Below are positions 11,763 to 43,874 of a DNA stretch of 64,000 nucleotides, piece after piece. A program made the position numbers and the translations under genes. The stretch comes from Imbricaverruca yamaguchii (lineage: Eukaryota > Arthropoda > Thecostraca > Neoverrucidae). The notes beneath the pieces are model-generated. The model was not told the origin of the DNA. It did not search any database and worked only from the letters and a program-made list of their open reading frames with translations. How positions within the stretch are numbered: position 1 is the stretch's first letter; each line of letters starts with the position of its first letter. Where the stretch lies: positions 35,001-99,000 of the forward strand of contig JAOTOL010001602.1 of NCBI GenBank assembly GCA_034440575.1. Reading direction: 5' to 3'.

Positions 11763-13094
11763 TTAGCACGCGCCCTGGAGGGGGGGGGGGCGAAATCCGC
11801 CTACCCCTCCGGTTTTTCGTAGATAACTCCTGATGTTACCGGCCCATATACACCATTGTTTGTGTACCTGCTAATACATGACCGGCGCGTTGTGTAAAGT
11901 AAGAGAAATGAAACTCGACTGAAAATTTTCGAGTTAGGGGTCGCTAAAGTAAAAAAATTCAGAGCCAGACCAAAAATATCGGCGCTGATGCGCTTCCCGT
12001 CTATTGGCAACAATGAAGAGTTCTTTGCAAAACCAGCGACTTCTTTGATGTACATTGTTATGCTATATTGTTTCAAAGTCATGTCAGGTCACCGAGGTCA
12101 GGTCAGGTCAAGTTCATGACAGGTTAGCACACGCACTGGAGGGGATGGCGAAATCCGCCCACCCCTCCGATTTTTCGTACATAATTCCATATTGTACCAG
12201 CTGATATACGCCATCTTTGCGTACCTGCTTAGAAATGATCGGCGCATTGTTTAAAGAAAGACAAATGAAAATCGGCCGATTAAAAAAAGATAGGTGCAGT
12301 TTAAGTAAAAACAATTCGCAGCGCCAGACCACAAAAATCGTCGCTGATGCACTTCCCGTATATTGGCAAATGGGAAGTGACCTTGAGAACACTAGCGACT
12401 TGTGTGATGCATATTGTTATGCTATGCAATTTAAAAGTAATGTTAGGTCGCCGAGGTCAAGTCAAGTCAAGTTCATGACAGGCTAATGGAACCAAACTTG
12501 GTCAACTGGAATGCTGTCATAAATGCAAATGACTGTCATGCGATTGATGTCACTTTGCATTTTACTCCCTACACATCCATATACTTACTGTTTGTCATTG
12601 TGCGCCAAAGCGTTTTCATACCTTATTCATGTATTTCACTCCTTTCTTTGCGAAGCCGATTATGCCGAGCTGCCTAACGCAGCAGTCAGGTGGGCAGCCC
12701 GGTTCCGGTAACTGGAGCAGGTAATGGCCTGACAAAGTGCTCCTATATGGGTGACCTGAGGTTAAATGGCGGATCTGGCATCTGTACTCCATCATTAGTA
12801 ATGTCCAAAACATCATTAATGCCAATTTCGGAGTATTTAAACACAATCACAGTGATCCATAACAATGAAAAGCCAAGCCATGCAAAATCAGAATGCGTTG
12901 CTATTTTGACCTCATTTGACCTTGAAGATATTGAGCTAAGGTCATACCATTTGCACACAATAGAGTTCACTATAGTGCCCATCCACCCTGCGGATTTAGT
13001 TGTTCTTGCCTTAATAGGAGCCTAGATCTTAGGGGGCGGAATACGCCCCCTCCAGTGCGCGTAATTTTCAGAGCCCCTCCATGGTGCGTGTTAA
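11763..13094 (+). mobile_element. Family C TTAA element with duplicated left end
   Basis: The right end (13091-13094) reads, on the minus strand, TTAACACGCACCATGGAGGG. It matches two left ends, TTAGCACACGCACTGGAGGG at 12124 and TTAGCACGCGCCCTGGAGGG at 11763. The first about 360 bp (11763-12123) and the next (12124-12483) are diverged tandem copies. The element is therefore either 12124-13094 (971 bp) with an extra left end or a nested pair. Each left end is followed by a G-run, a C-run and a CCCCTCCGNTTTTTCGTA box. The interior has AGGTCA-type hexamers. No transposase frame. Confidence 0.8.
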
Positions 13095-14025
13095 CATATT
13101 CTTCTGAAAATATAGCAGCATCAAACGGCACAACCCTATCACGGGGGTGTTACGCCACCTTTGGTTCCAGTCAGGCTGTCCCCGAGAGCAATACAGCAGC
13201 GAGCTAGCGTGTTGCACGTGTCATATCTGAGACCTTCTGGTTGGACCAGGTCACGTCGCATGGCCAGGTCAAGTAAACACAAGCTCGAATACCCCAGCAC
13301 CACCACTTTTGAGGTATTAAAAGTGTACTTCCTCCGACGATAACCGATGCGATGACGAAACTTCTCTGTCAACTGTCCAGTGCCTGAATTTGTTGCCTGA
13401 CCTAACATGCTGCTAGGTCAGGTCATGGCCGAACAGCATAACCTAACATGCTGTTAGATCAGGTCCTGGGTGCTGTTAGGTTAGGTCGTGCTGAAAAATA
13501 TGTAAATTGATAAGAAGCTGGCTTTGACCTTCGTCTCGGTGTGCACTGTTTGCACAATATGTTCATAGAAAGATCATGCAGGTGAAATAAGGTCAGGTCA
13601 TACGAGGTCAGGTTATCTCATGTCATCGGTTGGTCACCTAAGGCCATGACACGCGACTTACGTGGCATTGAAACATAATTCAGAGAAACACTTCAGGAGG
13701 AAATTCAACGTGCTGTATAGCATGACATCTTGCATATACTGCATGGTATTGAGCTTGAATGTCAACCATTGTTTGTTTAGTGGGGTTTAGGGGCGCATCG
13801 ACTGCAGTGGCCATGCATGCAGCGGAACGTAAGCCATTCACCTCGTCAGACATTTTTTTCAACAGAATGTCAAGGATACTCCGTCCCTTATTTACCCCAA
13901 GGAAAGTTGTACCAACTTATATTCGCATCACTCATGAAGTTTAAAAAAACGAATTCGCCATCACCCCAGGCCAGTAACATTGATTTTCATTTAAAAAATA
14001 ACTTTGTCATAGCGAGTTGTTCGTC
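13095..14025. other. AGGTCA-rich spacer
   Basis: No gene. 13395-13630 carries a dense set of AGGTCA/TGACCT-type hexamers around repeated AACCTAACATGCTGTTAG-like phrases. It may be a fragment of a fourth related element whose ends could not be identified. Confidence 0.5.
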
Positions 14026-15016
14026 TTAACCCGCGCTGGTCCGGGGGTTGATATCTGCCCCCTGCGGTTTTTCCTAATTTTCCGCAATACTAATAGAGAT
14101 AGCAAGCCCAAACATCGCATGACTGCTCATTAGTCTTTTCCACACATCCTCATGCATTTTAAATCCTGGGTCATCTTAGGTCAGGCCACCAGGTCAGGCA
14201 AAGTGACCCAACTACACCCGGAGTTATAGGTAGCATAACATCCACAATAACTGTACGATTGATTTCAAACTTACAACACGTCATGATCTCACTGGGGACC
14301 ATAATATGTATACCAGATTTTTTGTAGCATTGACCTTAGGTCAGGTCGCGGCCGTGGCTTCCCCATTATAGGGCTATGGTAAAATATGCAAATGTTTCCT
14401 GGTTATACATTTGCTCTCGGGATGATCTCACAACGGTTGTGGCATGTAGTTGGAAGCTATGCTCAATGTTACCGCTGCCATTTTTGCTCAATGACCTCAC
14501 CAAGGTTATCTGAGGTCACCTGAGATCACTACACATTTCTGCGCATTATATCGCACTGCATTGAGTTAGAAGGCTGAAATTACCGTCATTGTACTTGTTA
14601 CGCCAAGACGTGTCGATTGATACATTGCATGCCCTCACTATGCTACTTCATGCCCTTGATCTGAGGTCATAGTTTCGGTTGACCTGACTTTAAATCACAC
14701 ATCCTATTGTCGGTAGCACATTTCGAGGACTGTCGAATAGCTTCGCCGTTTGTTTCTATCTGTTACAGGTCCTGAGATTTGTGTCAATATCTGAGAGACC
14801 GACCCGATCTGGTCGAATTGGACCTATCATGGCCCAGTGACCTGAATATTGACCTGAGCGAAAAAATGACCGAACCACCTTCGATAGAGCCGGTCACCAG
14901 CTACCCAACGCCGTTTTCCGTTTGTCGCTAGCTAGCATAGGTCTAGAGATCTTAGGGGGGCAAACATCTGCCCCCAGGACATGCGAAGTTGGCGCCGACC
15001 GCTGGACGAGTGTTAA
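14026..15016 (+). mobile_element. Family B TTAA element, copy 1
   Basis: 991 bp bounded by TTAA at 14026-14029 and 15013-15016. It aligns over its full length with 18258-19253 in direct orientation. The left end has a G-run/C-run hairpin and a CCCCTGCGGTTTTTCC box. The right end has a GGGGGG...TGCCCCC hairpin before GACGAGTGTTAA. The interior is rich in AGGTCA/TGACCT hexamers. There is no coding capacity. TTAA is the piggyBac target site, so a piggyBac-like mobiliser is the leading inference. Confidence 0.87.
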
Positions 15017-15940
15017 TGGTTGAGCAATATGACTCGAGTGCGATGTTCACACGTTGGAACTACTCCGCATAGCAGCACTTCAAATATTTGGGAGCATTAC
15101 ACTCATTGGCGCTGCCCAAATCAATGACCAGTGATCTTGACCTGAAATTTGAGCGTGTTACGTAGGCATTGGAACGTACTGAAAGCTTAGTGTCTTAGCG
15201 TCCAATCATTCGGCCACTATCACGGAAAAACCTGACTGGACTCTCAAAAGCGCCATCTCCGATCCAAGCCGGCGTGAGCTAGACAAAGATTTCCATGAGT
15301 GCATTGCACTTCAGGGTGTCTCAAAATGAGCGAAATCTCACGCCCGTTTGCCTGCAGCGTGTCGTTTCGATTGCGCCACACTTCACTGGAGCTAGCCCAC
15401 TGTGCGCTCGTCGCCACACTTCACGGGAGCTGGCCCTCTGTGCGCTCGTCTCCGCCGAATCGCAGTGATTGAGGGGCACCCGGCCTGGAGGCAATATGTG
15501 GCGCCGATTTCGGCTAATGGCGGAATTCTTTGCGAAATAGCCGCGCGGCGCGCCTTGCAATCTTTCGCGCGCCGATTTGGGCTCTGGCGGTGCGACAGGG
15601 GCGTTATTGGCTTCCGGTGTCCGACCTCGATTGGCGCGAGGGCGGTCACACAGATGGCTTCGCATCAGGATTGGCCGACCACGACTGAATGCGTCCATAA
15701 ACTCGCCCTGCTTAAGATGGCTAAGGTAGGTGATACGCGAGTCAGTGCCCGGATTAAACAGGCGGGACGAAGTGCTCGCTACTGGTGAACAGCCTGTAGA
15801 GTGGATTTTATGTGGACGCTTTCGAACGGATCGCACCGATCCGGCTCGGCCATGAGAGCACGGCTTGACGTGGGGCTGTAGGACGAGATTGCGTAGCACA
15901 GCAGAACTGCACAAAACAGCCATGGTTCTCGTATGAGAGA
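15017..15940. other. Unassigned; short 41-bp duplication
   Basis: 15370-15455 holds two units of about 41 bp (CCACACTTCAC plus GGGAGCTGGCC-type phrases ending TGTGCGCTCGTC). The region is GC-rich. The overlapping minus frame 15321-16019 runs into the 12-bp minisatellite and is not convincing. Confidence 0.5.
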
Positions 15941-15944
15941 AATA

Positions 15945-16130
15945 TGCAGATGAATATGCAGTGGGATATGCTGGGTAATATGCAGGGGAATATGCAGATG
16001 GATATGCAGATGAATGCACAGAGGAATATTCAGAGGAATATGCAGAGGAATATGCAGGGGAATATGCAATGAAACATGGATTGGAACATACAGCGGAATA
16101 TGCAGTAGAATTCGTGGTGGAGTATGCAGT
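15945..16130. repeat. 12-bp minisatellite
   Basis: About 15 units of GGAATATGCAGA with variants. The minus strand reads a periodic four-residue SAYP-like frame, which is a by-product of the period. Confidence 0.85.
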
Positions 16131-16530
16131 TCCCTATGTTCTACCGATAATTGCTGTGGGTCAGACAGCGGCGAGTTGATTACGCTTGTGTCAGGTCATG
16201 TTCTCACTCCTCCGTACGCAGAGTATCGCGCTTCACCTCCGCTTGCCCATTCCTCTCTAGAAAGCGCAGACATATTTCACTTCTACAGCACCTCGATGTA
16301 ATATTGACATACAACGTTCTACTGTGTAACACTCCTCCAAGAACCAATGTATTAAATATGCATAAACTTCATCTGGTAAATGTGCAGTGAGTGAAAATGC
16401 CAAAGCGAGTCAAGGTGTTAAAGCTGGTTAAGATATTACAGCTGGCCAATAGGCGTGCAACGTAGGGATAGTATGGTGCGCACGTAAGAAGCTAGACGTA
16501 CGTTAACATCCAGCCAACAAACGTCTCTCT

Positions 16531-16663
16531 CCAGCCGAACGGCATGTCACGTGCAATCTAGGCCGATGAACTGCACGACGAAGAAAAGTGTCGCAGCGTC
16601 GTGTCGGCGCGCGGCGGTGAACAGCGAGCTCCGTCGCGGCTGCTCGCGCGATTCGGCAAATTC
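16531..16663 (+). repeat. Left copy of the long direct repeat flanking SINE1
   Basis: 133 bp, from CCAGCCGAACGG to GGCAAATTC. It recurs at 17000-17135 immediately after the SINE tail, with one substitution and a 3-bp indel. 16131-16530 upstream has no recognised feature. Confidence 0.93.
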
Positions 16664-16995
16664 CGCTCCGGTAGCTCAGTTGGTTGGAGCGCTGGCCTGC
16701 ACTGGTCTCCCCTGTACTGGCAACACAGGGTTCGAGTCGCTTCGCGCGCTCGCATTTAGCCCCCGGCCGGGGTGTCAGTTGGCACTGGTCCGATAAGGCC
16801 GGGACGAGCTACTGGGCGGCCGTGTGTGCATTGGCGGCACGGTAAACTTTGGTCTAAATTATGCCGTTGAACTGGAGTTCATGAATCGGGTGGTGGGGCC
16901 CGGGTTCCCGCAACAAGCTCCTTTTAACAATAGACCCCCCCCCCCACCCCCCCCCCAACAAATAAGAATAAATTTTTTTAAAAAAAAAAAAAAAT
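16664..16995 (+). mobile_element. SINE1 copy 2
   Basis: tRNA-like head with A box TAGCTCAGTTGG (16672-16683) and B box GGTTCGAGTCG (16729-16739). The body matches copy 1 (1508-1840) closely. The 3' part is disturbed by long C-runs (16927-16950) and ends in an A-run (16980-16994). It sits exactly between the two copies of the 133/136-bp direct repeat. Confidence 0.9.
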
Positions 16996-16999
16996 TTTT

Positions 17000-17135
17000 C
17001 CAGCCGAACGGCATGTCACGTGCAATCTAGGCCGATGAACTGCACGACGAAGAAAAGTGTCGCAGCGTCGTGCCGGCGCGCGGCGGTGAACAGCGAGCTC
17101 CGTCGCGGCTGCTCGCGCGACTATTCGGCAAATTC
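17000..17135 (+). repeat. Right copy of the long direct repeat flanking SINE1
   Basis: 136 bp matching 16531-16663. It differs by T/C in the GTGYCGGCG segment and by three extra bases (ACT) near 17120. Because the copies are not identical, a simple read-level duplication is less likely. Confidence 0.93.
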
Positions 17136-17318
17136 GCACGCTGGCGTACAGCAGCTGGTGCGACCGTCAGGAAGCCGGCCGAACAGCCGCCGTGAGCTGG
17201 GCCGGCTCTGACGCATCCACCGCCGCCGGGAGCGCGCTCCGAACTTCCAGGACTGGAGGCCGGTTGTGGGGCGGGCGCCCGCATAAGCAGCGAATCAGCT
17301 TCCGGATCTCACCGAGCC

Positions 17319-17596
<278 letters not shown>

Positions 17597-18257
17597 GTGG
17601 GGATGTGGGGTGAGTTGTTGGAAGCAGGTTCGCCAAGAACAGCGTCCTGCGGCACTCACAGTGCCTCGTGTTCTTGCGAGCTTGTTGTGACGATGCGAAA
17701 CGACTTTATACATCGGTATGGCGCACGTATTTCGAGTTCTTTTTCTGCCAGCTATGTTCGTGCCACCTGCGGATACCACTGGTACACGTTTTGTCCACGG
17801 CTTCCATGGTGGAATGGTCGCAGAAGGTACTCTTGGGAGTAGGGATAATTTGATCAGCGTCTCGCTCAGGAGAGATGTTCCAACGGATATTTGACGTGAA
17901 GTCGCCAGCAGTGGAAAAGGTGGGAATCAGCTTACGAGTAAGTCGATAGTGGTCGATATGGTGGATGTCAGTGTGGAATCAATGAGGTATACGTTGAGCA
18001 TTTGGGTGCAGCGGGAAAAGTGCCCAACGTGCAATCTCGCCAGTGTAAAAGAGGGCTGGGGTATGGGTGTCCAAAAAGTGTCAATAATATGATCGCGTTT
18101 GTCTATGCGGCCAGCGGCTGTATCTAAAGTTGGGCTGTGCACGATGAAATCACCGAGTAAGACATAGCCCCTTTGAAATGGGCTGCACATCATTCAACAT
18201 GTGATGAAAGCTATGTTGGATGGAAGATGGTTCCATCAAATCCCAATAGCCCAACTA
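17597..18257. other. Unassigned sequence
   Basis: No recognisable gene or repeat. Confidence 0.45.
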
Positions 18258-19253
18258 TTAACACGCGCACGTCCGGGGGAGATATATGCCCCCCTGCGGT
18301 TTTTCCTAATTTGCCGCCATATTAATCAGGTTAGCAAAGCCAAACATCGCATGGCTGCTCATTTGTCTTTTCCGCATATTCTCATACATTTTTAACCCTG
18401 GGTCATCTCAGGTCAGATCACCAGGTCAGGCGAAGTGACCCAACAGCACTCGAAGTTCTAGGTGGCATAACTTCCACGATAATTGGGTAATTGATTTCAA
18501 ACTTATAACACGTCATGATCTCGTCAGGGACCATAATATATATCTCGGGTTTTTACGTAGCATTGACCTGAGGTCAGGTCGCGGCCATGGCTTCCTCCAT
18601 TATAGGGCTATGGTAAAACGTACAAATGTTTCCTGGTTAAATATTTGCTCTCGGAATGACCTCACAACGGTTGTGGCGTGTAGTTGGAAGCTATGCTCAA
18701 TGTTACCGCTGACATTTTTGCTCAGTGACCTCACCAAAGTCATCTGAGGTCGCCTGAGATCACTAACACATTTATGCGCATTATATCGCACTGCATTGAG
18801 CTAGAAGGCTGAAATTACCGCCATCGTGCTTGTATCACCACGACGTGTCGATTGATATATTACATGTCCCCCTAGGCTACTTCATGAACTTGACCTGAGG
18901 TCTTAGTTTCAGTTGACCTAACCTTAAATCACACCGCCTACTGTCGATAGCACATTTCAAGATCTGTTGCATAGCGTTCGCCGTTTGTTTCTATCTTTTA
19001 CAGGTCCTGATATATGTGTCAATATCTGAGAGTCCCATCCGATCTGGTCGAATTTGACCTATGATGACCCAGTGACCTAAATATTGACCTGAGCGAAAAA
19101 TGACCGAAAAGCTTTCAACAGAGTCTGTCACCAGATATCCAACGCCGTTTTCCGCTTGTCGCTAGCTAGCATAGTTCTAGAGATCTTAGGAGGCAGACAT
19201 CTGCCCCCCGGATCGGCGAAATTGGCGCGGACCGCCGGACGTGCGAGTGTTAA
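18258..19253 (+). mobile_element. Family B TTAA element, copy 2
   Basis: 996 bp with the best-preserved ends in the window: left TTAACACGCGCACGTCCGG, and right end read on the minus strand TTAACACTCGCACGTCCGG, a match at 18 of 19. Each terminus is followed by a G/C-run hairpin, and the left one by CCCCTGCGGTTTTTCC. The interior matches copy 1 (14026-15016) and carries many AGGTCA/TGACCT hexamers. No transposase. Confidence 0.92.
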
Positions 19254-19611
19254 GACGATATGCATGCAAAGACTTGCAGCGGGGTAGTTAATGGTTTATG
19301 GGTGCCATGTAAATCGTCGCATATGCAAAAAGCCATGCCACCAATGCGCTGGGTCGGCTCCATATATCATCCGAAGAAATAGGCAAAATTTGGGGATTAC
19401 AATTAGACTGGTCGGAGAGCAACGTCAGTTTCTCTTGGACGGCAATGGAAAATCCAAGCTGAACATCATAGAATGCATTCGCATCAACCATCTGCACAAA
19501 TGACGACCAAAATTCCACATACGAGCAAAGCAAAAAAAGCAAAGCTCATAAGCCAAAAATACACCAGCAAAAGTTTCTCTAGTTCCGCACCTTTCGATGT
19601 AGGATGAATCC

Positions 19612-19800
19612 ACGATCCGACTGTGTGGTGGATGCCGCCGACTGTGTGGTGGATGCCACACGGTCGAGTGTGTGGTGGATGCCGCTGACTGTGTGGTGGA
19701 TGCCGCCGACTGTGTAGAGGATGCCGCCAACCGTGTGGTGGATTCCGCCGTCTGTGTGGTGGACTGCGTGGTGGAGGCCGCCGACTGTGTGGTAGGAAGG
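19612..19800. repeat. 21-bp minisatellite
   Basis: About nine units of ACTGTGTGGTGGATGCCGCC plus one base, with some shortened units. All overlapping minus-strand frames (19425-20231) draw much of their length from it. 19254-19611 has nothing recognised. Confidence 0.88.
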
Positions 19801-20800
19801 GGAGGGTGAGGGTCTGAGCCCTGATCCGGTGCTGTGCAAGCTCTGGAAGAGTCTCCGACTGTGTAGACGATATAGACATGCATGTGGAGAGTAAACACTG
19901 ACGTCGTGATGAGGAAATTTCCACCGATGCTGTTGCCGCGAGGGAAGTGACTGCGACGGTCCGGCAGCCCCGCGGCTAGAAAACACCGGGCTTCGCATTG
20001 ATCGCGCAGACTTCCCCGTCGTTCTCCCACGTGGGGACCGAAGTGGACTTGGCAGCGTGCTGCGAAGATACGCAGTTGAGGGACTTGACCGCCGCTGCGC
20101 GAGGAGAGACGGTGTGTGTATGGGGAGGCTCGCCACAAGTTCGACGTCGAGAAGGCCTGCGGATCGTCTTGTTGTCGTGGCACCGAACTGCCGACAAAAC
20201 AATGCAGACGGTTCGGAACGCAGTTGTCCACTTGATATCCGAGACCGCTGACGAGGAGACGTCTGAGAATGGCGGCGAAAGCGAGGACGTGGAGATTATG
20301 GAGAGTGGGGTGGAGACTCGAGGACGTGGAGATTATGGAGAGTGACGTGGAGACTCGAGGACGTGGAGATTATGTCGCGCTTGGCTGCAGGTTGGCACAG
20401 CTCCATTTCTGTTGTTCTCCATCCAAAGCGCGTTCACGTTTGAAAGCGCAGCGGGTTTGAGCTCTACGGGACGCGTCGCCCGAGGATATCCAGGGCGGTG
20501 TGGGATTCCAGCGGCGAACGTCGCTGGTTGCCTTCCGCTTTGCGAGCGCTGCACGTCCTTCACGGCTCGTCGGGGCCATTTTTCGCCGCCGCCACCGGAC
20601 GCCGGGGCAGGTTTCCGATCTCGAGAGGATGGACGCCTAATGATGGTCAATCGGAGGAAAGAGTCGGGCGCGGCGGGAGAGACGATGGGGGTGGGGGGGG
20701 GGGGGGGAGGGGGCATACGAACTCCGAGAGACGGGACTCGGTGAGATGACTGACTCAGTGAATCGGTAGTGACGCTAACCGTTGCCTGCGTGTCGCGCTA
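19801..20800. other. Unassigned GC-rich region with a short tandem repeat
   Basis: 20278-20372 contains three imperfect units built on GAGGACGTGGAGATTATG. The rest is GC-rich with overlapping frames on both strands and a G-run at 20690-20708. No protein recognised. Confidence 0.5.
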
Positions 20801-20819
20801 TTCGTGATTCGCGATCTCA

Positions 20820-21010: not shown

Positions 21011-21111
21011 TGCGTCTAACGGCTACTCAAGCTGCCTCCCTGTGTCAATCCGACTCGCCCTCCACCCTCCTCCCTTGCCTTCGTCCAACATCCGGCTCTC
21101 CCTCCTCATCT

Positions 21112-21113
21112 CG

Positions 21114-21151
<38 letters not shown>

Positions 21152-21162
21152 TATTTCTATTT

Positions 21163-21195
<33 letters not shown>

Positions 21196-23079: not shown

Positions 23080-23286
23080 TTGCGGACACACTCGTTTTTG
23101 TTTATTGGTTGGTTCACGACACACTTTATGCACATTCACGGCTAATGGCGCCGCCCACACTGTTTCGCCGGTGGGCCACTGGATTGGGAAATGTCCTGAG
23201 TGGCGCTGGAGTCGAACCCGGGACCTTTGGTACCCAAGCCCGACACCTTAACCACTCGGCCATCCTCGCCCCTTGCGGACACACTC
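23080..23286 (-). mobile_element. SINE3 copy 1 with target-site duplication
   Basis: Reverse-strand SINE with a head of type II tRNA (Ser/Leu) character: A box TGGCCGAGTGGTTAAGG and B box GGTTCGACTC on the minus strand. A perfect 14-bp duplication, TTGCGGACACACTC, lies at 23080-23093 and 23273-23286. The 3' tail is of the AACCAACCAATAAACAAA type. Other copies are at 29769, 37510, 51330 and 61888. Confidence 0.95.
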
Positions 23287-24459: not shown

Positions 24460-25320
24460 TTAACCCGTCCCGTCTCGGGGGGGAGGGGGGAGGGTATTCA
24501 ACCGCCCCTCAGGTTTTTCACGGATAGCGGACGAACGGCGCGCGGCAGCACGCCCAAATTTGGCATACCTTTTCCCACATCAATTTGACATGCTGATTCA
24601 AACTTTTTAGGTCAGGCAATGTAGGGCAATGAGTTAGTCAAGGTCAAGTGAGGTCACCTCCAAAAAGTTAAACTAGTCGTCACGCTTTAACGGATACAGA
24701 TATTTTAATGAAACTTTCAGCGTTTGCTTATCTTTACGGATGCAATCAAACGTACCAGTTTAATTTTTCATTTTTTTCGTTCTTGACTACATATAAATTT
24801 TGCGTATTTGCCAAATTGTAGTTCAAATACAGGATTCTGTCTAAAGTAAGCATTTTTTATAGGGAGCATGTTAGGGCAAGTTGACTTCCATCAACGTTTT
24901 TTCGGTCTGCTCTACCCATTGTAAAAGGAAAATTTCAGAATACTTGAAAACTCAAAATTTTGAAATTTCCCCAATTTTTTTTTTGGCGAGGTCAAAAAAC
25001 AAAAATAGCCCTGGTCGATTTCGCTGTCTTTTTCTCATTCCAAATAAATTTTGTTTTTCATATATCCCCCAAAATGAACTCCCCAGAGTCAAAAACATAA
25101 TGTAAGTCGTGAAAAGTCGTGAAAATCTAGCCCCCCTGGTGACGTCACTTTTGGAGGAAATTGTTTTGGAGGGCGGACACGGGCCCAACTCGGCGAGCGC
25201 TTTCCGATGACACCAGTTTCGTTTTCGTGCGATGCTTAGTTTGGATTTTAGAAGGGGGTCTTCAACCGCCCCCCCCGAGACGGGGTGGGAGGATTTGACC
25301 GGAAAGACGGCGCGGGTTAA
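24460..25320 (-). mobile_element. Family A TTAA element, copy 2, full length and inverted
   Basis: 861 bp bounded by TTAA (24460-24463) and TTAA (25317-25320). The left end runs TTAACCCGTCCCGTCTCGGG, a G-run, TTCAACCG and the CCCCTCAGGTTTTTC box. The right end, on the minus strand, is TTAACCCGCGCCGTCTTTCC followed by the same CCCGTCTCGGGG block. This is the reverse complement of copies 1, 3 and 4. AGGTCA/TGACCT hexamers cluster at 24605-24660. No transposase frame. Confidence 0.9.
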
Positions 25321-27084: not shown

Positions 27085-27670
27085 GGGTGTTGATATCCCG
27101 GTGTATTGTGGAGTAGTACTCCGATTGTGAGTATGGGCAGTGTTGATAGCCTGGTGTATTGTGGGGTAGTACTCCGGTAGTGAGTGTTGATAGCCCGCTG
27201 TATTGTGGGGTGGTAGTCCGATTGTGAGTGTTGATAGCCTGGTGTATTGTGGGGTAGTAGTCCGATTGTGAGTGCTGATAGCCTGGTGTATTATGGGGTA
27301 ATAGTCCTATTGTGGGTGTTGATAGCCTGGTGTATTGTGGGGTAATACTCCGGTAGTGAGTGTTGATAGCCCGTAGTATTGTAGGGTGGTAGTCCGATTG
27401 TGAGTGTTGATAGCCTGGTGTATTGTGGGGTAGTAGTCCGATTGTGAGTGTTGATAGCCTGGTGTATTGTGGGGTGGTAGTCCGATTGTGAGTGTTGATA
27501 GCCTGGTGTATTGTGGGGTAATACTCCGGTAGTGAGTGTTGATAGCCCGTTGTATTGTAGGGTGGTAGTCCGATTGTGAGTGTTGATAGCCTGGTGTATT
27601 GTGGGGTAGTAGTCCGATTGTGAGTGTTGATAGCCTGGTGTATTGTGGGGTAGTACTGAGATTGTGAGTG
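27085..27670. repeat. 44-bp minisatellite open in all minus frames
   Basis: About 13 units built on GTGAGTGTTGATAGCCTGGT, GTATTGTGGGG and TAGTAGTCCGATT. The 44-bp period shifts frame each unit, so each minus-strand frame cycles through the same 44-residue super-repeat, and none meets a stop. The minus frames 27074-27892 and 27307-28347 owe most of their length to this. Confidence 0.93.
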
Positions 27671-29386: not shown

Positions 29387-29565
29387 CTGTCCGAGTATGT
29401 TGGTTGGTTATTGGTTTGTACGACACATCGACCGTTGAGTCATGCAGCGTCGCCAATCTCTCACGCCGATTGGTCGCGGGAGAAGAGTAGCGAGAGGTGA
29501 GACTCGAACCCACAACTTTTCGATTGTGAGACGAGCAACTTACCCCTGGGCTGTCCGAGTATGTT
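29387..29565 (-). mobile_element. SINE2 copy 2 with target-site duplication
   Basis: A perfect 15-bp duplication, CTGTCCGAGTATGTT, lies at 29387-29401 and 29551-29565. The minus-strand head has a GGGGTAAG A-box segment and a canonical GGTTCGAGTC B box. The tail is AATAACCAACC. Confidence 0.96.
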
Positions 29566-29755: not shown

Positions 29756-29959
29756 AAGGACTGTGTGGGGGGCGTGGATGGCCGAGTGGTTAAGGTGTCG
29801 GGCTATGGGTACCAAAGGTCACGGGTTCGACTCTAGCGCTACTCAGGACATTTCCCAATCCCGCGGCCCACCGGCGAAACAGTGTGGGCGGCGCCATTAG
29901 CCGTGAATGTGCATAAAGTGTGTCGTGAACCAACCAATAAACAAACAAGGACTGCGTGG
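29756..29959 (+). mobile_element. SINE3 copy 2, plus strand, with target-site duplication
   Basis: A box TGGCCGAGTGGTTAAGG (29779-29795) and B box GGTTCGACTC (29824-29833). The tail AACCAACCAATAAACAAAC ends near 29946. It is flanked by AAGGACTGTGTGG (29756-29768) and AAGGACTGCGTGG (29947-29959), 12 of 13 matching. It is the only SINE3 copy in the window on the plus strand. Confidence 0.95.
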
Positions 29960-33185: not shown

Positions 33186-33790
33186 ATGAAGCCTGTCACT
33201 GCTGGGTTGGACTGATGACGTCACTGCTGGGTTGGGCTGATGACGTCACTGTTGGGCCGGGCTACTACCGTCACTGTTGGGTCGGGATGATGACGTCACT
33301 ATTGGGTCGGGCTGCTACCGTCACTGTTGGGCCGGGCTGCTACCGTCACTGTTGGGTCAGTTGGGTGGGCTGACGTCACTGTTGAGCCGGGCTGCTACCG
33401 TCACTGTTGGGCCGGGCTGCTACCGTCACTGTTGGGCCGGACTGCTACCGTCACTGTTGGGCCGGGCTGCTACCGTCACTGTTGGGCCGGGCTGCTACCG
33501 TCACTGTTGGGCCGGACTGCTACCGTCACTGTTGGGTCGGGCTGATAACGTCACTGTTGGGTTGGGCTGCTACCGTCACTGTTAGGTCGGGATGATGACG
33601 TCACTATTGGGTCGGGCTGCTACCGTCACTGTTGGGCCGGGCTGCTACCGTCACTGTTGGGCCGGGCTGCTAACGTCACTGTTGGGTCGGAATGATGACG
33701 TCACTATTGGGTCGGGCTGCTACCGTCACTGTTGGTCCGGACTGATGACGTCACTATTGGGTCGGCCGATGTAGTGATGACGTCACTGCT
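33186..33790. repeat. 25-bp minisatellite carrying CRE octamers
   Basis: About 24 units of GTCACTGTTGGGCCGGGCTG plus CTACC. Variant units read GATGACGTCACT instead of GCTACCGTCACT, giving eight exact TGACGTCA octamers starting at 33216, 33241, 33291, 33371, 33596, 33696, 33746 and 33778. Open frames across it are by-products. Confidence 0.93.
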
Positions 33791-34620: not shown

Positions 34621-35950
34621 CACCGACGCCCATGAGTGCCGGTGTCGTGGGCGAATTTGCCCCGGGCGACGGAGTACGGGTGGAACCCTCACTCCCACGC
34701 CGCGAAGCGTGGGAGGAATTTTCGCCCAGATAGCCCAGATTAAAGGGGTTTGTTCCCTGGTGCTGGCAGGAAGCGTGGTGTTTTGGTACAACTCTGGGGT
34801 GGTGGGAGAATGGCGAACGGACTCGGGTCGCTGTGGGCGACTGAGTAAGGAAGTCAGATCGTTGAGCGAGGTGGAATTTTTCCCGGCCGACGGGCTTCGA
34901 CAGAGTGAAGTAGACATCCAGGCCATCGTGGTGGGAATGGCCGAATCCGTCACACCTGATCTATGGTGATGCTTAGGTTGGAGATGGGGTGCTAAGCCAG
35001 TGATTGCGGGATGCTGAGTGAACCACCTCCGGACATGGATGAATCGCCGACGGAGATGGGTGGAGCGGCACTAATCTGATTGGAGAGACGTATGCTGCCG
35101 TCGATAGCGGTCCGCTCCAATCCGTGACCTTGACCGAGCGAGTTCTCACCCTTGACCTGCTCGTGAGTTGGGAATCCGAGTGTCCTCGAGATTGGCGCGT
35201 GCTGAGTCTGACGTCATCAGACGCGCAGCCAGGCATCCTAGAAAGGAGGAAACAAACGGCGAATGGAGGGGCAATTGAGATTCCAGACAGCCGTGAATGA
35301 GATAATGGGAGGGCATTGGTGTCAATGTATGGCACTCATTATACATTGTCCAAAAAAGAGGTTCGGAATTACTTTCTAGTTGACAAAAGACTGGCATCAC
35401 TCCAAGGTTGACAATCTCGGAGAGATCAGTCTAAGATTGTTAATGCTTTACATCGGTGTAAAGCATTTTTGCTGGGTCACAAAAGAATTTGTTTAGTGCA
35501 CGTGCATCCATGAAGAATTGTAGGGGTTGAATTGGTATGAACGTGTTCATCATGGAACAGATACTTTCGTGTGCAGTAAATACACTTTATTCGAAGTGTG
35601 ACGACAAAAAGCAAGTGTCAAAACTGATAATGTATTCGACAGACCCATCGATATTTTAAATGAAAGGTTAAATTATATCCTTGGTAAGCTTTTGTGACGA
35701 TCGCAAAATATACAGGGTATAGCACATACAAACAAAACATAGATTTAATTTATCCATGCACTACCTACCAGACACGTTCTTGACATCCACAGCTTTGCTA
35801 GGAGGTAGAAGGTAGTCGGTAGCAATGTTACTATTGGTGTGCCTTCTTACATGACGTTGCGTGAACGGGCTGGAGCATACATGCTTGTTTTAAAAATAAC
35901 TTGCTTGCGGTTCGTGGATGACAACGGGAGTACATTGCTAACAGCAAAAA
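34621..35950. other. Unassigned, with an 11-bp hairpin
   Basis: No gene recognised. Perfect inverted repeat with 11-bp arms at 35442-35452 and 35457-35467 (AATGCTTTACA) and a TCGG loop, followed by a T-run. Confidence 0.5.
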
Positions 35951-35959
35951 TGTTCAGCA

Positions 35960-36150
35960 CATAACTTATCATTTTAACACAACATTTTAACATTTTAGCA
36001 CAACATTTTAACATTTTAACATTTCAAGTCTTATTCTAACTGAATCTTAACAACGTAGCATTTCAATTGAACTTGGCATTCAACGTTTTAATTCGGATAG
36101 CACATTTTAGCCTTTTAACACGGCATTTTAAAATTGTAGCATTTTACAGT
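35960..36150. repeat. AT-rich short repeats
   Basis: Irregular ACATTTTAACA-type units of about 11-14 bp. Confidence 0.75.
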
Positions 36151-36834
36151 TAAAATTGTAAGGTGCTCACCAAAACAGACAAAATGTTCATACATGGTGT
36201 CTTGTACGTTCGGAAAGTGTTCTGTATTATTTCTGGGAACATCGCTTGTGACAATGGTCATACCAAATGTGGAAGACCTTGTTATGGTTAATTTTGGAAT
36301 TGTTTCGCTTCTTTGGGAAATTGGTTTGGTTACTTACCTTACGCAATTGGTTACTTTGTAAGCCAAATGTGCGAAGTCCGAGTCGTCATTGACTGAATAA
36401 AAAGGGTGCCGTTTTTCTTATCATCAGGAATCAATACCACCATGTTTCTTTTTAATCCAAGGAGTTTACATGTCAGCCTTTTAGTATTTTCGTCATTGGA
36501 TACAAAATTAATATTTGCATTTTGACCCTGTGCCACGCACAGTTGGATGCGACACAGGCTGGATATCGTGCATGCAGCGAGAGCATCGATTTTGCCTCTT
36601 GCGAGACCAAGGCTAGCTACACTTTTTGAAAAAAATATCCTTCTCATCACCTCCTCACCACCTTTGGTATCGACGGGGAATAACTCGGCATAGACAGAAC
36701 AGCAGTTGTACCGCATCCGGGTCGGCAAGTCCCTGGGTTCGTTCTGTCCAAACCCGAACAGCCTTGACCTTGTCGGGGTAAGACATTTGCCCTTGAAAAG
36801 GTGATGGGCCGTGGAAATGGCCACCTTCACGAAC

Positions 36835-37240
36835 AATTCAAAACAAAAACAAAACAAAAACAATTCAAAACAAAAACAATTCAAAACAAACACAATTCAA
36901 AACAAAAACAATTCAAAACAAACACAATTCAAAACAAAAACAATTCAAAACAAAAACAATTCAAAACAAAAAACAATTCAAAACAAAAACAATTCAAAAC
37001 AAACACAATTCAAAACAAACAATAAAAACAAACAAAAACAATTCAAAACAAAAACAATTCAAAACAAAACAATTCAAAACAAAAACAATTAAAACAAAAC
37101 AATTCAAAACAAAAACAATTCAAAACAAAAACAATTCAAAACAAAAACAATTCAAAACAAAAACAATTCAAAACAAAAACAATTCAAAACAAAAACAATT
37201 CAAAAAAAAAAAACAATTCAATTCAAAACAAAAACAACAC
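36835..37240. repeat. 16-bp minisatellite
   Basis: About 25 units of ACAATTCAAAACAAAA with length variants. It contributes the first ~20 residues of the minus frame 36351-36893 and all of the N/K/Q-rich plus frames. Confidence 0.95.
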
Positions 37241-37495
37241 CTTCACGAAACAACAGCGACAGAGATCTAACATTGTGCCTCCGGTGTCGACGTGCAACGC
37301 GACTTTTCGAGTGGCTCCTCCTCCGTCGACATGGCAACCCAGCAGACAAGCCTGACATCACGTGACGTAAAACCCTACCGAGTTGGCGGATGTTGCCAGT
37401 GACGGCGTCTGAGCAAATTGAGCGACACACCGCGAAGAGGCTACCAGCACGTGATCACTGGCGACAGATTGCCCGGACACGGACACGGAGGAACA

Positions 37496-37712
37496 CGTCG
37501 TCGCACCGCTTGTTTTGTTTGTTTGTCTTGTTGGGTGGTTCACGACACACTTTATCCACATTCACGGCTAATGACGCCGCTCACACTGTTTCGCATGTGG
37601 AACGCGGGGTTGGGAAATCTCCTGAGCGGCGCTAGTGTCGAACCCGGGACCTTTGGTACTCATAGTCCGACACCTTACCCACTCGGCCATCCCTGCCCCG
37701 TCGTCGCACCGC
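37496..37712 (-). mobile_element. SINE3 copy 3 with target-site duplication
   Basis: A perfect 14-bp duplication, CGTCGTCGCACCGC, lies at 37496-37509 and 37699-37712. On the minus strand the head reads GGCCGAGTGGGTAAGG, and the B box is GGTTCGACAC. The tail is ACAAGACAAACAAACAAAAC-like. Confidence 0.95.
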
Positions 37713-38399
37713 GTTGCGCGTCGATGCCGCGTCTGCGACACCTTCCCCAGCTCCAAAACCGTCGCGTCTCACTAATCGAGATCGTCGGCTGCGCCTCGAA
37801 CAACTTGTTCATTGACGCTTCAACTCGGCGTAATCACGCCGACGCCGGCGGCGTGTGTAATCAGACAATCAGACGTGTGTAATCAGGCGTGTGTAATCAG
37901 ACTGGCACAAGTTCCCACCGGGAAGTGGCGGCTCTGTTCGCACACAAATTCGCGGTGATATCCGGACCGGAAATCAATAGCGCTGAACGACGGAAGCCCG
38001 TCGACAGACGGGATTCCGGCTCCTTCGACGTTAGCCATTCACGGCATCCTGCGGAAAATACGGCAACTGATAACAATTGTGGCGAGGTAGTGAGCCAGTG
38101 GGGTTGCTGTGTTGACTAGGCGAGTGGGATGGATTTGGAGATGGGGTGGGGGGATGGAGGAATGGGTGAATGGGGAGGTTATTGGATAAACTGGAAGGCG
38201 AGATAATAAATTGCAGGGAGGATGAGTGGATTTGATTGCGTGACTAGAAGTGGCACGGAAGTCAACAGCATGAAGGGCACTACACAAGTAAAGGCAATGA
38301 AATTATAAACAAGAATGAATTGCAAACAGTTCCTCCAATGTGCTTTATTGATAACTCTGGGGATACCTGTGTAAATTAACAATTACCTGATAACTTCAA
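37713..38399. other. Unassigned sequence
   Basis: The phrase AATCAGACGTGTGTAATCAG is locally repeated near 37855-37900. No gene recognised. Confidence 0.45.
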
Positions 38400-38499
38400 T
38401 ACTTTTTCTTCAACGATAGGTAGTGAATTGGAAAAAAAATACCTGGAACACACATCAGTCCATTATATTATCTTACGCAGCCTAATTATGCAAGCATTA

Positions 38500-40155
<1,656 letters not shown>

Positions 40156-40410
40156 ATGTCAATTATAGTAATGTGCTATGCACGGCGATCTGGTGTCTTT
40201 TTGGGATATTTTCGTTTAAGAATCATGTTTCTTTCTTCTTCTTCATACTTTGTTCGTCCTTTCTCCTTAGTGTAGTAATAGTTTAGGAGATGCATGTGCA
40301 AGATTATGGATTTTGCATCATTTCCCCATTAACACATATGGCAGCTATTTTCCTGGAGCCTTCGAAGACGTTACTGACATTGCTAATTGTCTGAGAGGGC
40401 TCCAGGAACA
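40156..40410 (+). other. Likely LINE 3' UTR with a hairpin
   Basis: Follows the LINE stop. It contains 11-bp inverted arms, TTCCTGGAGCC (40350-40360) and its complement (40398-40408), with a 37-base loop. No poly-A or target-site duplication was identified, so the true LINE end is uncertain. Confidence 0.5.
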
Positions 40411-42014
40411 TCTTTTACTAATATCTGGTGGCGGGATCTGTCCAGTAAGAAACAGGAGCGGGGAGTGATGTGACTTGCGTTGAGTTGCTTACCACGACCT
40501 ACTTCTCACCATTGAAACTTAACGTAATTATGTCGCACGGGTATGGAAGGGCACACCTGTCTACCTATTAATGGGTAGGGAATTTACAAATACAATTTTA
40601 AAAAGAAAAGAAAGAGGCGAGGAGGAAGATCAGAGTGAATTAATGGAGTGTGGCAAGCCAAACTCGTCCAGAGTACCTGAAAATTAATGCGACGCGTTAA
40701 TGCATGCAGCATCACTCGAGACTGCATTGCAGCATTGCACTCTTCGCTATGAATGTTGCACACGGGCACATTTGGTTGCGGCGCAGATTTCGTTAATCGT
40801 TCTATTTATCGTACAGCATTCCACGTCGGAGCCAGAAAAGCACCAATTGCTGGGAATGGAAAAATATATCCATAATCATGGGTTTAGCTACTACCGATAT
40901 AAAATGGATTCGTTCCACGGAAGAACCACTTGAGAACAGATGCAATGAATGGAAACCCGTCTGGCGCTTTAACTTTATTCATCAACGAAGCCAGCTCCAG
41001 TGGTTTGCGGCAGAATCGCCAGGGAATTTCAAAACAAACGGTCGCGTCTCCCGAAGTAACCTCTGGGACGGCGGGGCTGTAACTTCAACGCCACCCTGGA
41101 GTGCCATCTGCACAGCAGGGAACTTGTGGAAAATTATAGTCGCTTTTTGGCGATCATGACACGCACTTCACGGTCGAGCGGCGTGGAGAGCCACCGTTTG
41201 CGGGGAATTGCAACGCTTTGGATTCTTTTCGAAAATGTTGCAGAAAGTGCTGCAGATAGCAGGCTCCCGGAGGACACAGCTGCGAACGACGCAGAAGTTC
41301 CGGAGAGTCTTCTTTCAACTGGCAGAAAAACAAACAGCACGTTGACGGGCCTCGATGTTCCAGCCGGAAAGTCCCTGATAGGTTTATGCGTTTGCAACAA
41401 TGTACTCTATGATCACAGAATTGGGGCGTGTATGCGGTTCCATCGCTAATGCTTGCACTTGGCGGTTTACGGAGTTGTGTACGTTTAATTATTTGTCTAC
41501 GCCTCTTGATATGCCATCATGATATCGAGATTTCAGGCAGCCATGTTTTGAACCATTTGAGCAAGGAAAAATTTCCAATGATGGCATGTGCGTAGCTGCT
41601 GCGTTGCTATAAATCATTCTGGTCCAATGTATATAAATGCAGCTTAAATTTTTAGATATGAATCAGTTTATGAATCTACAGCCCGGCTCGAATTATATTT
41701 GTGGTGCTATGATACAATTCAACCTATCGATTTTCTTGCATTCATATCCGCCATGGCACAACATCATAAATCACCTTCTATCTTGTTTGAAACATATACT
41801 AGGGAAAAGTGTACGTGAAGAGCAAATTGCATGATGAACGCGTGATATTCGGCTGGCAACCCAATACAACATCCTGGACCACGGAATTCCCAATTTCTGG
41901 CGTCTGAATCCACCCATGCAGCGCCTAGATGGAGGAACTCATATCATATCTCATATAGAGGGATTCGGTCAGACGCATTCGCTTTAGTTGCCACGCGAAG
42001 CAATCAGACTTTTC
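40411..42014. other. Unassigned sequence
   Basis: Open frames at 40878-41449 lack recognisable domains. No repeat family seen. Confidence 0.45.
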
Positions 42015-42774
42015 TTACCCAACCCGTCTCTCCTGTCAGATCCTCACACACCGTCCTGAGAGGGGAGGGGGAGGGGGTTGATAAAGACCCCTCTAATCTT
42101 CAAACCAAGCGTCGCACGAAAACGAAATAGGTGTCATCGGAACGCACTCGACGAGTAGGGCCAGACACCGCCTCCAAACATTCCCCCCAAAAGTAATGTC
42201 ACTAGGGACCATAGAGTTTCACGACTTGCATCATGTTTGTGGCCTTGGGGGTTCACTTTGAGGGAGATTAAAAAAACGCAAATTATTTCGAATCAGAAAA
42301 GAAAAGGGAAATCGACCAGAGCCATGAAATGTTTGGCCACCAAAAAACCTTATTTTTTATCTTGTTTTAGTGAAAAAAAATTGAGTGCTCAAGTTGTGTT
42401 TAATTTTCGTTTTCTAATGGGTAGAGGGGACCGAGAAGCGTTGTTGGAAGTCAAACTTGCTCCAATAAAAAATGTTTATTTTAGCCAGGATCGTCGATTT
42501 TATGTCTAATGGAAAAATTTACAAAACTAATAAGTAATCAAAAAGGGAGAAAAAATGAAGCGTGACGACTGGTTGAACTTTTTTTGGAGGTGACCTCACT
42601 TGAGCTTGACTAACTCGTTGACCCTAAATGACCTGACTTCAAAATTTTGACACATGTCAAATTGATGTTGAAAAAGTTATGCTGAATTTCGGCGCTCTGC
42701 CACGCTCCATTCTTTCACAGTCCGCGGAAAACCTCAGGGGGGGGCGTTGTCGTCAACGGGACCGTACGGGTTAA
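42015..42774 (+). mobile_element. Family A TTAA element, copy 3
   Basis: 760 bp. The diverged left end begins TTACCCAACCCGTCT and the right end is CGTACGGGTTAA (TTAA 42771-42774). Relative to copy 4 it lacks about 100 bp of the interior, the segment upstream of GCGTGACGACTGG. TGACCTCACTT and TTGACCCTAAATGACCTGAC phrases are retained. No coding frame. Confidence 0.88.
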
Positions 42775-43123
42775 GTAGATAATACGAAAGTGATGCATTG
42801 GTACATGTATGATGAATTATATTTCATATAGAACGTTCTATATTCTATATTTTACCGATAGTGCAGGGAAATCATAGCCATTGGATACTACTTAGAACTA
42901 GCAGCAACAAAGATGAATGAAGATTATCCGCATAAATCCTGCTGATATAGCATGTTGAGTTTATATATGAAAACAAATGACCGTTGAGTGGATTCCTCCA
43001 ATTATCACTTCTTCACTTCAGGAAGTTATGAAAACAATATAAATCAAATTAATCAGCATCTGAATTACAATAACCATTGGATTATTTCAAAGAGCGATGT
43101 GTAGCTATGAAGTAACAACTGGC
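42775..43123. other. AT-rich spacer between two family A copies
   Basis: 349 bp with no recognised feature, containing short ATATAGAAC/TCTATAT-type repeats near 42825-42855. Confidence 0.5.
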
Positions 43124-43874
43124 TTAGCCCGCGCCGTATTTCCGGTCAGATCCTCACATCCCGTCTCGGGAGGAGGGTGGAGAGTAACCCCCATCTGAAA
43201 TCCCAACTAAGCGTCGCACGAAAACGAAAGAGGTGTCATCGGAAAGCACTCGACGAGTAATGTCTGGATCCACCCCTAAAAAACAATTCCCCAAAAGTGA
43301 CATCACTAGGGGGGGCTAGCTTTTCACGACTTTTCACGACTTACATTATGTTTTTAGCTCTGGGGAATTCATTTTGTGGATATTTGAAAATGAAAGAAAA
43401 CTTGAAAACATGAGTTTCCAAGTTTTCTTTAATTTTCCTTTCCTAATATATAGAGGAGACCGAGAAGCGTTGTTGGACTTTCCTCATAAAAAATGCTTCC
43501 TTTAGTCAGAATCTTCAATTTGAACTGCAATAGGTAAATATGAAAAAAATTATATGTAGTCAAAAACGGAAAATATGATTCCCCTCGTACGTTGTATTGC
43601 ATCCCTAAAGATAACCAAACGCTGAAAGTTTCATTATAATATCTGCTTCCGTTAAAGCGTGACGACTGGTTTAACATTTTTGGAGGTGACCTTACTTGAC
43701 CTTGACTAACTCGTTGAACCTGGATGACCTGACTTCACAATTTTGAAACAGTACGCCAAATTGATGTGGAAAAAGGGATGCCAAATTTTGGCGCGCTGCC
43801 TCTCGCCGTTCGTTCACTATCCGCGAACAAAACCTGAGGGGGGGGGGCGGTTGAAGAGAGACGGAACAGATTAG
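43124..43874 (+). mobile_element. Family A TTAA element, copy 4
   Basis: 751 bp. The left end is TTAGCCCGCGCCGTATTTCC (from 43124). The right end is AACAGATTAG (43871-43874), so the flanking tetramer is TTAG on both sides. The right subterminal G-run plus CGGTTGAAGA is present. Same orientation as copy 3, 349 bp away. Confidence 0.88.

What the first reader, a model, noticed from the sequence alone, without database searches (positions are those of the whole stretch)
11763..43874. Three TTAA-ended element families share one end architecture
Families A (2350-3075, 24460-25320, 42015-42774, 43124-43874), B (14026-15016, 18258-19253) and C (11763-13094) have different interiors but the same end layout. 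Each has TTAA (or TTAG), then C-C/A-C, then a G-run, about 8-15 bases, a C-run, and a box of the form CCCCTNNGGTTTTTC about 40-50 bp from the terminus. The box reads CCCCTCAGGTTTTTC in A, CCCCTGCGGTTTTTC in B and CCCCTCCGGTTTTTC in C. All are 0.75-1.0 kb and non-coding. I read them as one superfamily of non-autonomous elements, possibly piggyBac-mobilised.
Basis: partly seen in the sequence, partly recalled or inferred. Interest (0 to 1): 0.8.

Follow-up and report, generated by a model that had tools for sequence, protein, structure and literature searches.

The report
Three piggyBac-like non-coding transposon families
Three families of short jumping-DNA elements without recognisable genes share lopsided ends laid out like those of the piggyBac transposon, so they were probably moved by piggyBac-type enzymes made elsewhere in an unidentified, animal-like genome; the kind of element is already known.

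Summary
The observation partly holds. Four A copies, two B copies and C are real dispersed repeats with TTAA (sometimes TTAG) ends. The box CCCCTNNGGTTTTTC is at one end only: exact in 4 of 8 such ends, one mismatch off in 2, more degraded in 2. C is not one 1.3-kb element but a 971-bp element (12124-13094) behind a 361-bp fragment of a second copy.

The ends are asymmetric. At the box end (LE) a G-run/C-run dyad, where present, starts 13-14 bp inside TTAA/TTAG. At the other end (RE) the repeat recurs 27 bp further in for A24460 and C, 27-29 for B18258, 24 for B14026. Published T. ni piggyBac spacers (3 and 31 bp) give 28. Kolobok, which also duplicates TTAA, has RR termini; readable termini here mostly start CC or CA.

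I read these as non-autonomous piggyBac-like elements moved in trans. No transposase was found in the window, and the host genome could not be searched. B and C mostly begin CAC, missing the usual CCC, so their membership rests on architecture. Interiors of the three families are enriched 7- to 18-fold in AGGTCA, unexplained. New member of a known kind.

The parts
24460..25320 (+). Family A element, TTAA at both ends; LE = left
24505..24519 (+). LE box CCCCTCAGGTTTTTC
24469..24483 (+). LE copy (LE bp 6-20) of the inner repeat CCCGTCTCGGGGGGG
25270..25284 (-). RE copy (RE bp 33-47) of the same inner repeat, offset 27
25254..25276 (-). RE G-run/C-run stretch of family A (weak dyad), starting 40 bp inside TTAA
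43124..43874 (-). Family A copy, TTAG at both ends; LE = right, box degraded, terminal repeat 7/13
42017..42774 (-). Family A copy; LE = right with TTAA, RE without recognisable TTAA
42726..42740 (-). LE box of this A copy, 1 mismatch
2350..3075 (-). Family A copy; LE = right with TTAA, RE lost (homology starts at 2363)
14026..15016 (+). Family B element, TTAA at both ends; terminal repeat only 5/13
14043..14062 (+). B LE dyad, 13 bp inside TTAA
14059..14073 (+). LE box CCCCTGCGGTTTTTC
14956..14975 (-). B RE dyad, 37 bp inside TTAA in this copy (offset 24)
14946..14959 (-). RE box CCCCCTAAGATCTC
18258..19253 (+). Family B element, TTAA at both ends, terminal repeat 12/13
18275..18294 (+). B LE dyad, 13 bp inside TTAA
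18291..18305 (+). LE box CCCCTGCGGTTTTTC
19189..19209 (-). B RE dyad, 40 bp inside TTAA
19180..19193 (-). RE box, 1 mismatch
12124..13094 (+). Family C complete element (971 bp), TTAG left, TTAA right, terminal repeat 9/13
12162..12176 (+). LE box of the complete C element, 1 mismatch
12129..12144 (+). C LE bp 2-17, recurring at RE bp 29-44
13047..13062 (-). C RE inner repeat copy (RE bp 29-44), offset 27
13032..13050 (-). C RE dyad GGGGGCGTATTCCGCCCCC, 40 bp inside TTAA
13023..13036 (-). RE box CCCCCTAAGATCTA
11763..12123 (+). 361-bp LE fragment of a second C copy, 77.5% identical to the start of the complete element; exact box at 11804-11818

Best explanation
A, B and C are old, non-coding (MITE-like) elements with piggyBac-type ends that were cut and pasted in trans by piggyBac-like transposases encoded elsewhere. 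Shown: TTAA or TTAG at the readable ends, a short terminal inverted repeat in the better-kept copies, and an LE/RE asymmetry in which the inner part of the terminal repeat and a G-run/C-run dyad lie about 27 bp (24-29) further in at the RE than at the LE. Inferred: the dyad is where the transposase's C-terminal zinc-finger dimer binds, as the 19-bp palindrome is in T. ni piggyBac; the shift (about 2.6 turns of DNA) leaves room for a second transposase dimer on the RE, so that LE and RE are unequal partners in synapsis; integration is at TTAA. B and C look like sister families; A is more distant and shares the LE box and the layout.
For: LE against RE without gaps, 8 sets (C counted twice, from 11763 and 12124, with one RE). 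Offset 27 is the best in A24460 (15 of 15 bases), C and C12124; 0 of 500 shuffled REs reach these scores at any offset. B18258 has 8 of 8 at 27 (P 0.068 any offset, 0.004 at 27) and its best non-zero offset is 29 (P 0.014 any offset). B14026 is best at 24 (0 of 500). A43124 is best at 27, 7 of 7 (P 0.23 any, 0.006 at 27). Published T. ni layout: 13-bp terminal and 19-bp sub-terminal repeats, spacer 3 bp at 5' or 31 bp at 3' (PMC2532691, one passage), i.e. 28; RE bp 34-63 almost identical to LE bp 7-35 (PMC7351741, passages); the palindrome, LE bp 17-33, is the zinc-finger dimer site (PMC7351741, passages). CsuPLE1.1 has asymmetric sub-terminal repeats and a CTAA target among its variants (PMC4273485, passages); CTAA reads TTAG on the other strand. 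Kolobok termini are RR (PMC9587614, passages). LE similarity between families: P 0.013, 0.003, 0 of 300.
Against: No transposase: none detected in the window, and the host genome was not searchable. B18258, C and the B14026 RE begin CAC, not the CC[C/T]T given for piggyBac in PMC2872659; strict CC[C/T]T is met by no readable end here. Terminal repeats match 12, 11, 10 and 9 of 13 in B18258, C11763, A24460 and C12124, but 7 in A43124, 5 in B14026 and 3 in A42017 and A2350. Taken singly, most dyads do not beat shuffled ends (P 0.02-0.98 over 16 rows, two of them the same C RE); in family A the algorithm's best dyads are not at the expected positions, and the C12124 LE and the C RE each have a second, equal centre elsewhere. 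A42017 and A2350 show nothing at 27. RE sequence is not shared between A and B or A and C (P 0.51, 0.27).
Confidence: 0.8

Rival explanations
1. The elements are non-autonomous Kolobok elements; that superfamily also duplicates TTAA.
For: TTAA at both ends of 3 of 7 elements; Kolobok MITEs at TTAA are known (PMC6004289, passages).
Against: Kolobok termini are 5'-RR (PMC9587614, passages); readable termini here start CC or CA, with TC at the decayed LE of A43124. The piggyBac-like LE/RE offset is not mentioned in the Kolobok passages I saw; I did not search for it further.
Confidence: 0.06
2. The three families are independent: shared ends reflect convergence of G/C-run sequence plus TTAA, with different transposases.
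For: Interiors do not align beyond shuffles for A-B and A-C and only marginally for B-C (P 0.02); RE similarity is absent between A and B or C. Low-complexity G/C runs inflate end similarity.
Against: The box (13 specified bases) sits at one end of all three families (0.01 expected in the window); B and C also share the RE box; all three have an RE repeat shifted by 24-29; the C12124 LE also resembles the A24460 RE (0 of 300), though the five other LE-versus-other-RE pairs give P 0.04-0.40.
Confidence: 0.13
3. The target duplication is TA (Tc1/mariner) or TTA (Harbinger-type), and the fourth base is coincidence.
For: TTAG at three left sites and one right site breaks a strict TTAA rule.
Against: The outermost T is kept at 6 of 6 readable left sites (A42017 and A2350 unreadable; C counted at 11763 and 12124) and the outermost A at 6 of 7 right sites; these would be random host bases under TA, and the outer A under TTA. 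Caveat: the ends were first picked because they looked like TTAA.
Confidence: 0.03

Closest known systems
piggyBac (IFP2) of Trichoplusia ni
   Same: TTAA; terminal repeat followed by a palindromic sub-terminal repeat close to the LE tip and 28 bp further in on the RE; part of the terminal repeat duplicated inside the RE (PMC2532691, PMC7351741, PMC3459987; passages)
   Different: Here no coding capacity was recognised, the dyad is G-run/C-run, the offset is 24-29 (27 in the clearest copies), boxes abut the dyad at the LE (all families) and the RE (B, C), and termini are CCCG or CAC instead of CCCT
CMITE elements of Acropora corals (PMC2872659; abstract and part 1 of Results read)
   Same: Several MITE families with TTAA, related to piggyBac-like transposons; tandem arrays are reported, as at C here
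   Different: CMITEs are about 100 bp and share their interior more than their terminal repeats; here the LE box and layout are shared and interiors differ
MER85 / PGBD3 of primates (PMC3459987, passages)
   Same: Non-autonomous piggyBac-type elements with a palindrome 3 bp inside the 5' terminal repeat, needed for transposase binding
   Different: PMC3459987 gives MER85 a sole palindrome, 96 bp from the 3' terminal repeat. A later preprint (PMC12324416, passages) says MER75, MER85 and Looper have sub-terminal or inner inverted repeats at both ends, so this contrast is not settled
CsuPLE1.1 of Chilo suppressalis (PMC4273485, passages)
   Same: 13-bp terminal repeats, asymmetric sub-terminal repeats, a CTAA target among variants
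   Different: Autonomous, begins CCCA, 25-bp sub-terminal repeats, lepidopteran

Membership tests
piggyBac superfamily | TTAA target duplication | tested here: met
   TTAA on both sides in 3 of 7 elements (A24460, B14026, B18258); TTAG on both sides in A43124; TTAG/TTAA in C; one side unreadable or lost in A42017 and A2350. No empty site available
piggyBac superfamily | Short (12-19 bp) terminal inverted repeats | tested here: inconclusive
   Matches over 13 bp: B18258 12, C11763 11, A24460 10, C12124 9, A43124 7, B14026 5, A42017 3, A2350 3. In a TTAA-only scan with a composition filter, B18258 and A24460 are the only pairs at 10 or better, against a mean of 0.35 (largest 2) in 20 shuffles. 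Good in at least one copy per family, poor in the rest
piggyBac superfamily | Terminal CC[C/T]T | tested here: not met
   CCCG at both ends of A24460, at the LEs of A2350, A42017 and B14026 and at the RE of A43124; CACG at the B18258 LE, C11763 LE and C RE; CACT at both B REs; CACA at the C12124 LE. Published members with CCCA exist (AmiPB4 in PMC2872659; CsuPLE1 in PMC4273485). B and C are therefore placed by architecture only
piggyBac superfamily (T. ni type) | Asymmetric ends: inner repeat about 28 bp further in at one end | tested here: met
   27 in A24460, C and C12124, 27-29 in B18258, 24 in B14026, 27 but weak in A43124, no signal in A42017 and A2350
piggyBac superfamily (T. ni type) | Palindromic sub-terminal repeat | tested here: inconclusive
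   B and C dyads visible at the expected places, but most single ends do not beat shuffles (P 0.02-0.98 over 16 rows) and family A's are weak or elsewhere
piggyBac superfamily | DDD transposase (PF13843) in the autonomous partner | not testable with these tools
   None detected in the window: best six-frame profile hit E 3.3 against controls at 1e-93 to 3e-5; host genome not searchable
Kolobok superfamily | 5'-RR ... YY-3' termini | tested here: not met
   Readable termini start CC or CA, TC in one decayed end; rule from PMC9587614 (passage)

The most novel reading that the evidence does not exclude
The ends carry 'address' boxes that tell left from right: CCCCTNNGGTTTTTC abutting the LE dyad in all three families, and CCCCCTAAGATCT abutting the RE dyad in B and C. 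If the transposase or a host factor reads them, this would be a piggyBac lineage with end-specific recognition beyond the asymmetric spacing known in T. ni. The AGGTCA motifs in all three interiors could be a further shared binding site, either sub-terminal transposase sites or nuclear-receptor half-sites.
Probability: 0.25. Interest if true: 0.5.

Novelty: new member of a known kind. Interest (0 to 1): 0.33.

Why it matters
The lopsided ends of piggyBac have been called enigmatic, and with the native transposase only LE/RE pairs both excise and integrate in cells (PMC7351741, passages), although the title of a 2022 paper, seen only in a reference list, says that asymmetric ends inhibit transposition in mammalian cells. 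piggyBat lacks the same pattern (PMC11707139, passages). If three MITE families with different interiors keep nearly the same offset, spacing rather than sequence may be what is constrained, and these families offer natural variants for testing that.

Tried and rejected
Autonomous partner. Six-frame profile search of the window with 39 piggyBac transposases (every third of those under 700 aa among the 120 that one search listed, of 974 found): best window hit E 3.3; tblastn with three of them, best E 0.88. All 9 control fragments scored 3e-5 or better, but they derive from proteins close to the profile, so a very divergent or short remnant could be missed. Pfam on 10 open frames inside the elements (10 of the 28 that one search listed; none from B14026): no family. 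Pfam on 7 other frames of the window: one reverse transcriptase.

Relatives elsewhere. One A-family pattern in viral contigs and a slightly shorter one in genome contigs: 0 exact matches each. B and C were not searched, and neither collection is meant to hold animal genomes, so this says little. piggyBac proteins in viral contigs: 94 stretches matched a pattern, none confirmed.

Host. A reverse transcriptase frame (38817-39611) finds 98 relatives, nearly all without an organism name; the two with one are arthropod, at ranks 52 and 60. Species not identified. Rfam and tRNA scans of the window: 0 hits.

Dropped as evidence: single palindromes, because most do not beat shuffles. Nested insertion of C into C: in the self-BLAST nothing right of 13094 resumes the first copy, so tandem duplication or a truncated copy is as likely. 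Further TTAA families: only B18258 and A24460 reach 10/13 in the filtered scan. AGGTCA in MITEs: one paper search; the term AGGTCA occurs in none of the 6 papers listed, and I opened none of them. PMC8086355 was looked at (passages) and not used.

Changed on checking: the B18258 and terminal-repeat statements were made more exact, and confidence went from 0.82 to 0.80 because terminal repeats are poor in half of the rows.
Full report
What is there. The window looks eukaryotic (inferred): long GT, TA, TG and CT microsatellites, a reverse transcriptase frame (PF00078) and short repeats that look tRNA-derived by eye. The host is unknown. Self-comparison confirms that A, B and C are dispersed repeats: B14026 and B18258 are 86% identical over 1000 columns; A pairs are, in pieces, 69-84% identical. 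Both figures suggest old insertions.

The box. CCCCTNNGGTTTTTC with up to one mismatch occurs six times in 64 kb against a mean of 0.01 in shuffles, all six inside A, B or C. It marks one end only, which I call LE. Of 8 LEs (four A, two B, C from 11763 and from 12124), 4 are exact, 2 have one mismatch and 2 are more degraded. At the other end (RE), B and C share CCCCCTAAGATCTM: 3 matches with up to 2 mismatches, 0.31 expected, no shuffle of 100 with three. A does not have it.

Family C re-delimited. Bases 11763-12126 repeat at 12124-12485 with 77.5% identity, and the tandem-repeat finder sees the same unit (period 359, 1.9 copies). The complete element is therefore 12124-13094, 971 bp, close to B (991 and 996 bp); 11763-12123 is an LE fragment of another copy.

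Terminal repeats. Over the first 13 bp inside the target site, LE and RE match at 12 positions in B18258, 11 in C read from 11763, 10 in A24460, 9 in C12124, 7 in A43124, 5 in B14026, and 3 in A42017 and A2350, whose REs are degraded or lost. A scan of all TTAA pairs 150-4000 bp apart, with a composition filter, finds B18258 and A24460 at 10 or better against a mean of 0.35 in 20 shuffles; at 9 or better the window has 4, about as many as the shuffles (mean 3.4).

The asymmetry. LE and RE were compared without gaps at offsets -10 to 60. A24460 matches best at 27 (LE bp 6-20 = RE bp 33-47, 15 of 15), C best at 27 (LE 2-18 against RE 29-45), and C12124 best at 27. For these three, no shuffled RE of 500 reaches the score at any offset. 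B18258 has its terminal repeat at 0, a dyad match at 29 (P 0.014 at any offset) and 8 of 8 bases at 27 (P 0.068 any, 0.004 at 27). B14026 is best at 24 (0 of 500). A43124 is best at 27 but weakly (7 of 7; P 0.23 any, 0.006 at 27). A42017 and A2350 show nothing at 27, as expected for a degraded and a lost RE. C and C12124 also match at 21 and 24 through the dyad itself. So the boundary of the repeat is shifted by 27 and the dyad by about 24-29 (21 where the C11763 G-run is expanded). Best dyad centres are 23.5 bp at both B LEs and 26 at the C12124 LE, and 47.5, 51.5 and 50 bp at the REs of B14026, B18258 and C. The C12124 LE and the C RE each have a second, equal centre (60 and 38.5). C11763, with an expanded G-run, gives 29. 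Family A does not give centres at these places, and of 16 rows only one (the C RE, 0.02 in one run and 0.06 in the other) falls below P 0.05.

Comparison with piggyBac. T. ni piggyBac has 13-bp terminal and 19-bp sub-terminal repeats with a 3-bp spacer at the 5' end and a 31-bp spacer at the 3' end (PMC2532691, passage), hence an offset of 28. Chen et al. state that RE bp 34-63 are almost identical to LE bp 7-35, that the palindrome (LE bp 17-33) is bound by a dimer of C-terminal zinc fingers, that with native transposase only LE/RE pairs both excise and integrate in cells, and that inserting 5 bp in the RE or randomising its inner repeat cuts activity by about half (PMC7351741, passages). A hyperactive transposase is less strict (same passages). 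Asymmetric sub-terminal repeats are also described for CsuPLE1.1, with CTAA among its rare target variants (PMC4273485, passages). MER85 has its palindrome 3 bp inside the 5' terminal repeat (PMC3459987, passages); a preprint reports sub-terminal or inner inverted repeats at both ends of MER75, MER85 and Looper (PMC12324416, passages). piggyBat lacks the same pattern (PMC11707139, passages). Kolobok, which also duplicates TTAA, has RR termini (PMC9587614, passages; AGGRR or AG in Xenopus, PMC6004289, passages), which is not the case here.

How far the families are related. With one representative per family (A24460, B18258, C12124), LE similarity beats shuffles for all three pairs (P 0.013, 0.003, 0 of 300). 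RE similarity does so only for B-C (0 of 300; others 0.51 and 0.27). Of six LE-against-other-RE pairs, C LE with A RE gives 0 of 300 and the rest 0.04-0.40. Interiors do not align beyond chance for A-B and A-C (0.30, 0.51) and marginally for B-C (0.02). So B and C look like sisters and A more distant.

A shared interior feature. AGGTCA/TGACCT occurs 44 times in the 6415 bp of the seven elements (6.9 per kb) and 36 times in the other 57585 bp (0.63 per kb). Copies of one family are not independent, so the same was asked with one representative each (3 of 7): A 4, B 11, C 6, against shuffle means of 0.31, 0.47 and 0.34 (P 0.0005, and 0 of 2000 twice), and it is the top hexamer by its minimum over the three. 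Relative to the rest of the window this is 7-, 18- and 10-fold. AGGTCA is a nuclear-receptor half-site (recalled). Its role here is unknown. It is not confined to the elements: nine copies lie at 13.25-13.61 kb and four at 10.27-10.42 kb.

Mechanism. I infer cut-and-paste in trans by a piggyBac-like transposase, with the dyads as sites for its C-terminal zinc fingers and the shift of about 27 bp as the device that makes LE and RE unequal partners. No transposase was detected in the window (controls close to the profile), and none of 10 element frames tested has a Pfam family.

Limits. The terminal motif CC[C/T]T is strictly met by no readable end here: most readable A ends and the B14026 LE keep CCC, the other B and C ends read CAC. 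Membership of B and C is thus by architecture. The asymmetry is known for piggyBac, so the kind is known; what is added is three further families and the end-specific boxes. I did not establish that these families are unpublished: no repeat library such as Repbase was at hand, and my six paper searches concerned piggyBac ends, MITEs, Kolobok and AGGTCA, not these sequences.

Noticed in passing
23097-23272, 29769-29945, 37519-37699, 51330-51506, 61890-62065: Five copies of a roughly 180-bp repeat, 73-96% identical in pairs, with tRNA-like box A and box B sequences read by eye on the reverse strand, probably a SINE; ARAGORN and Rfam give nothing
   Followed up: partly
3504-3667, 29399-29552, 60305-60465: Second short dispersed repeat, about 150-160 bp, 87-94% identical
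   Followed up: no
38817-40047: Reverse transcriptase frame (PF00078, 38817-39611) holding a 114-bp AT microsatellite, followed by a second frame (39664-40047) without a Pfam match that may be its continuation. The two relatives with organism names are arthropod, not among the closest
   Followed up: partly
2350-3075, 11763-13094, 14026-15016, 18258-19253, 24460-25320, 42017-42774, 43124-43874: AGGTCA half-sites enriched in the interiors of all three families
   Followed up: partly
13248-13610: Nine AGGTCA/TGACCT motifs in about 360 bp just right of C, outside any element recognised here; possibly a decayed further family
   Followed up: no
7687-8121, 27139-27670, 33195-33765, 53967-54624: Minisatellites with 31-, 44-, 25- and 13-bp units
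   Followed up: no
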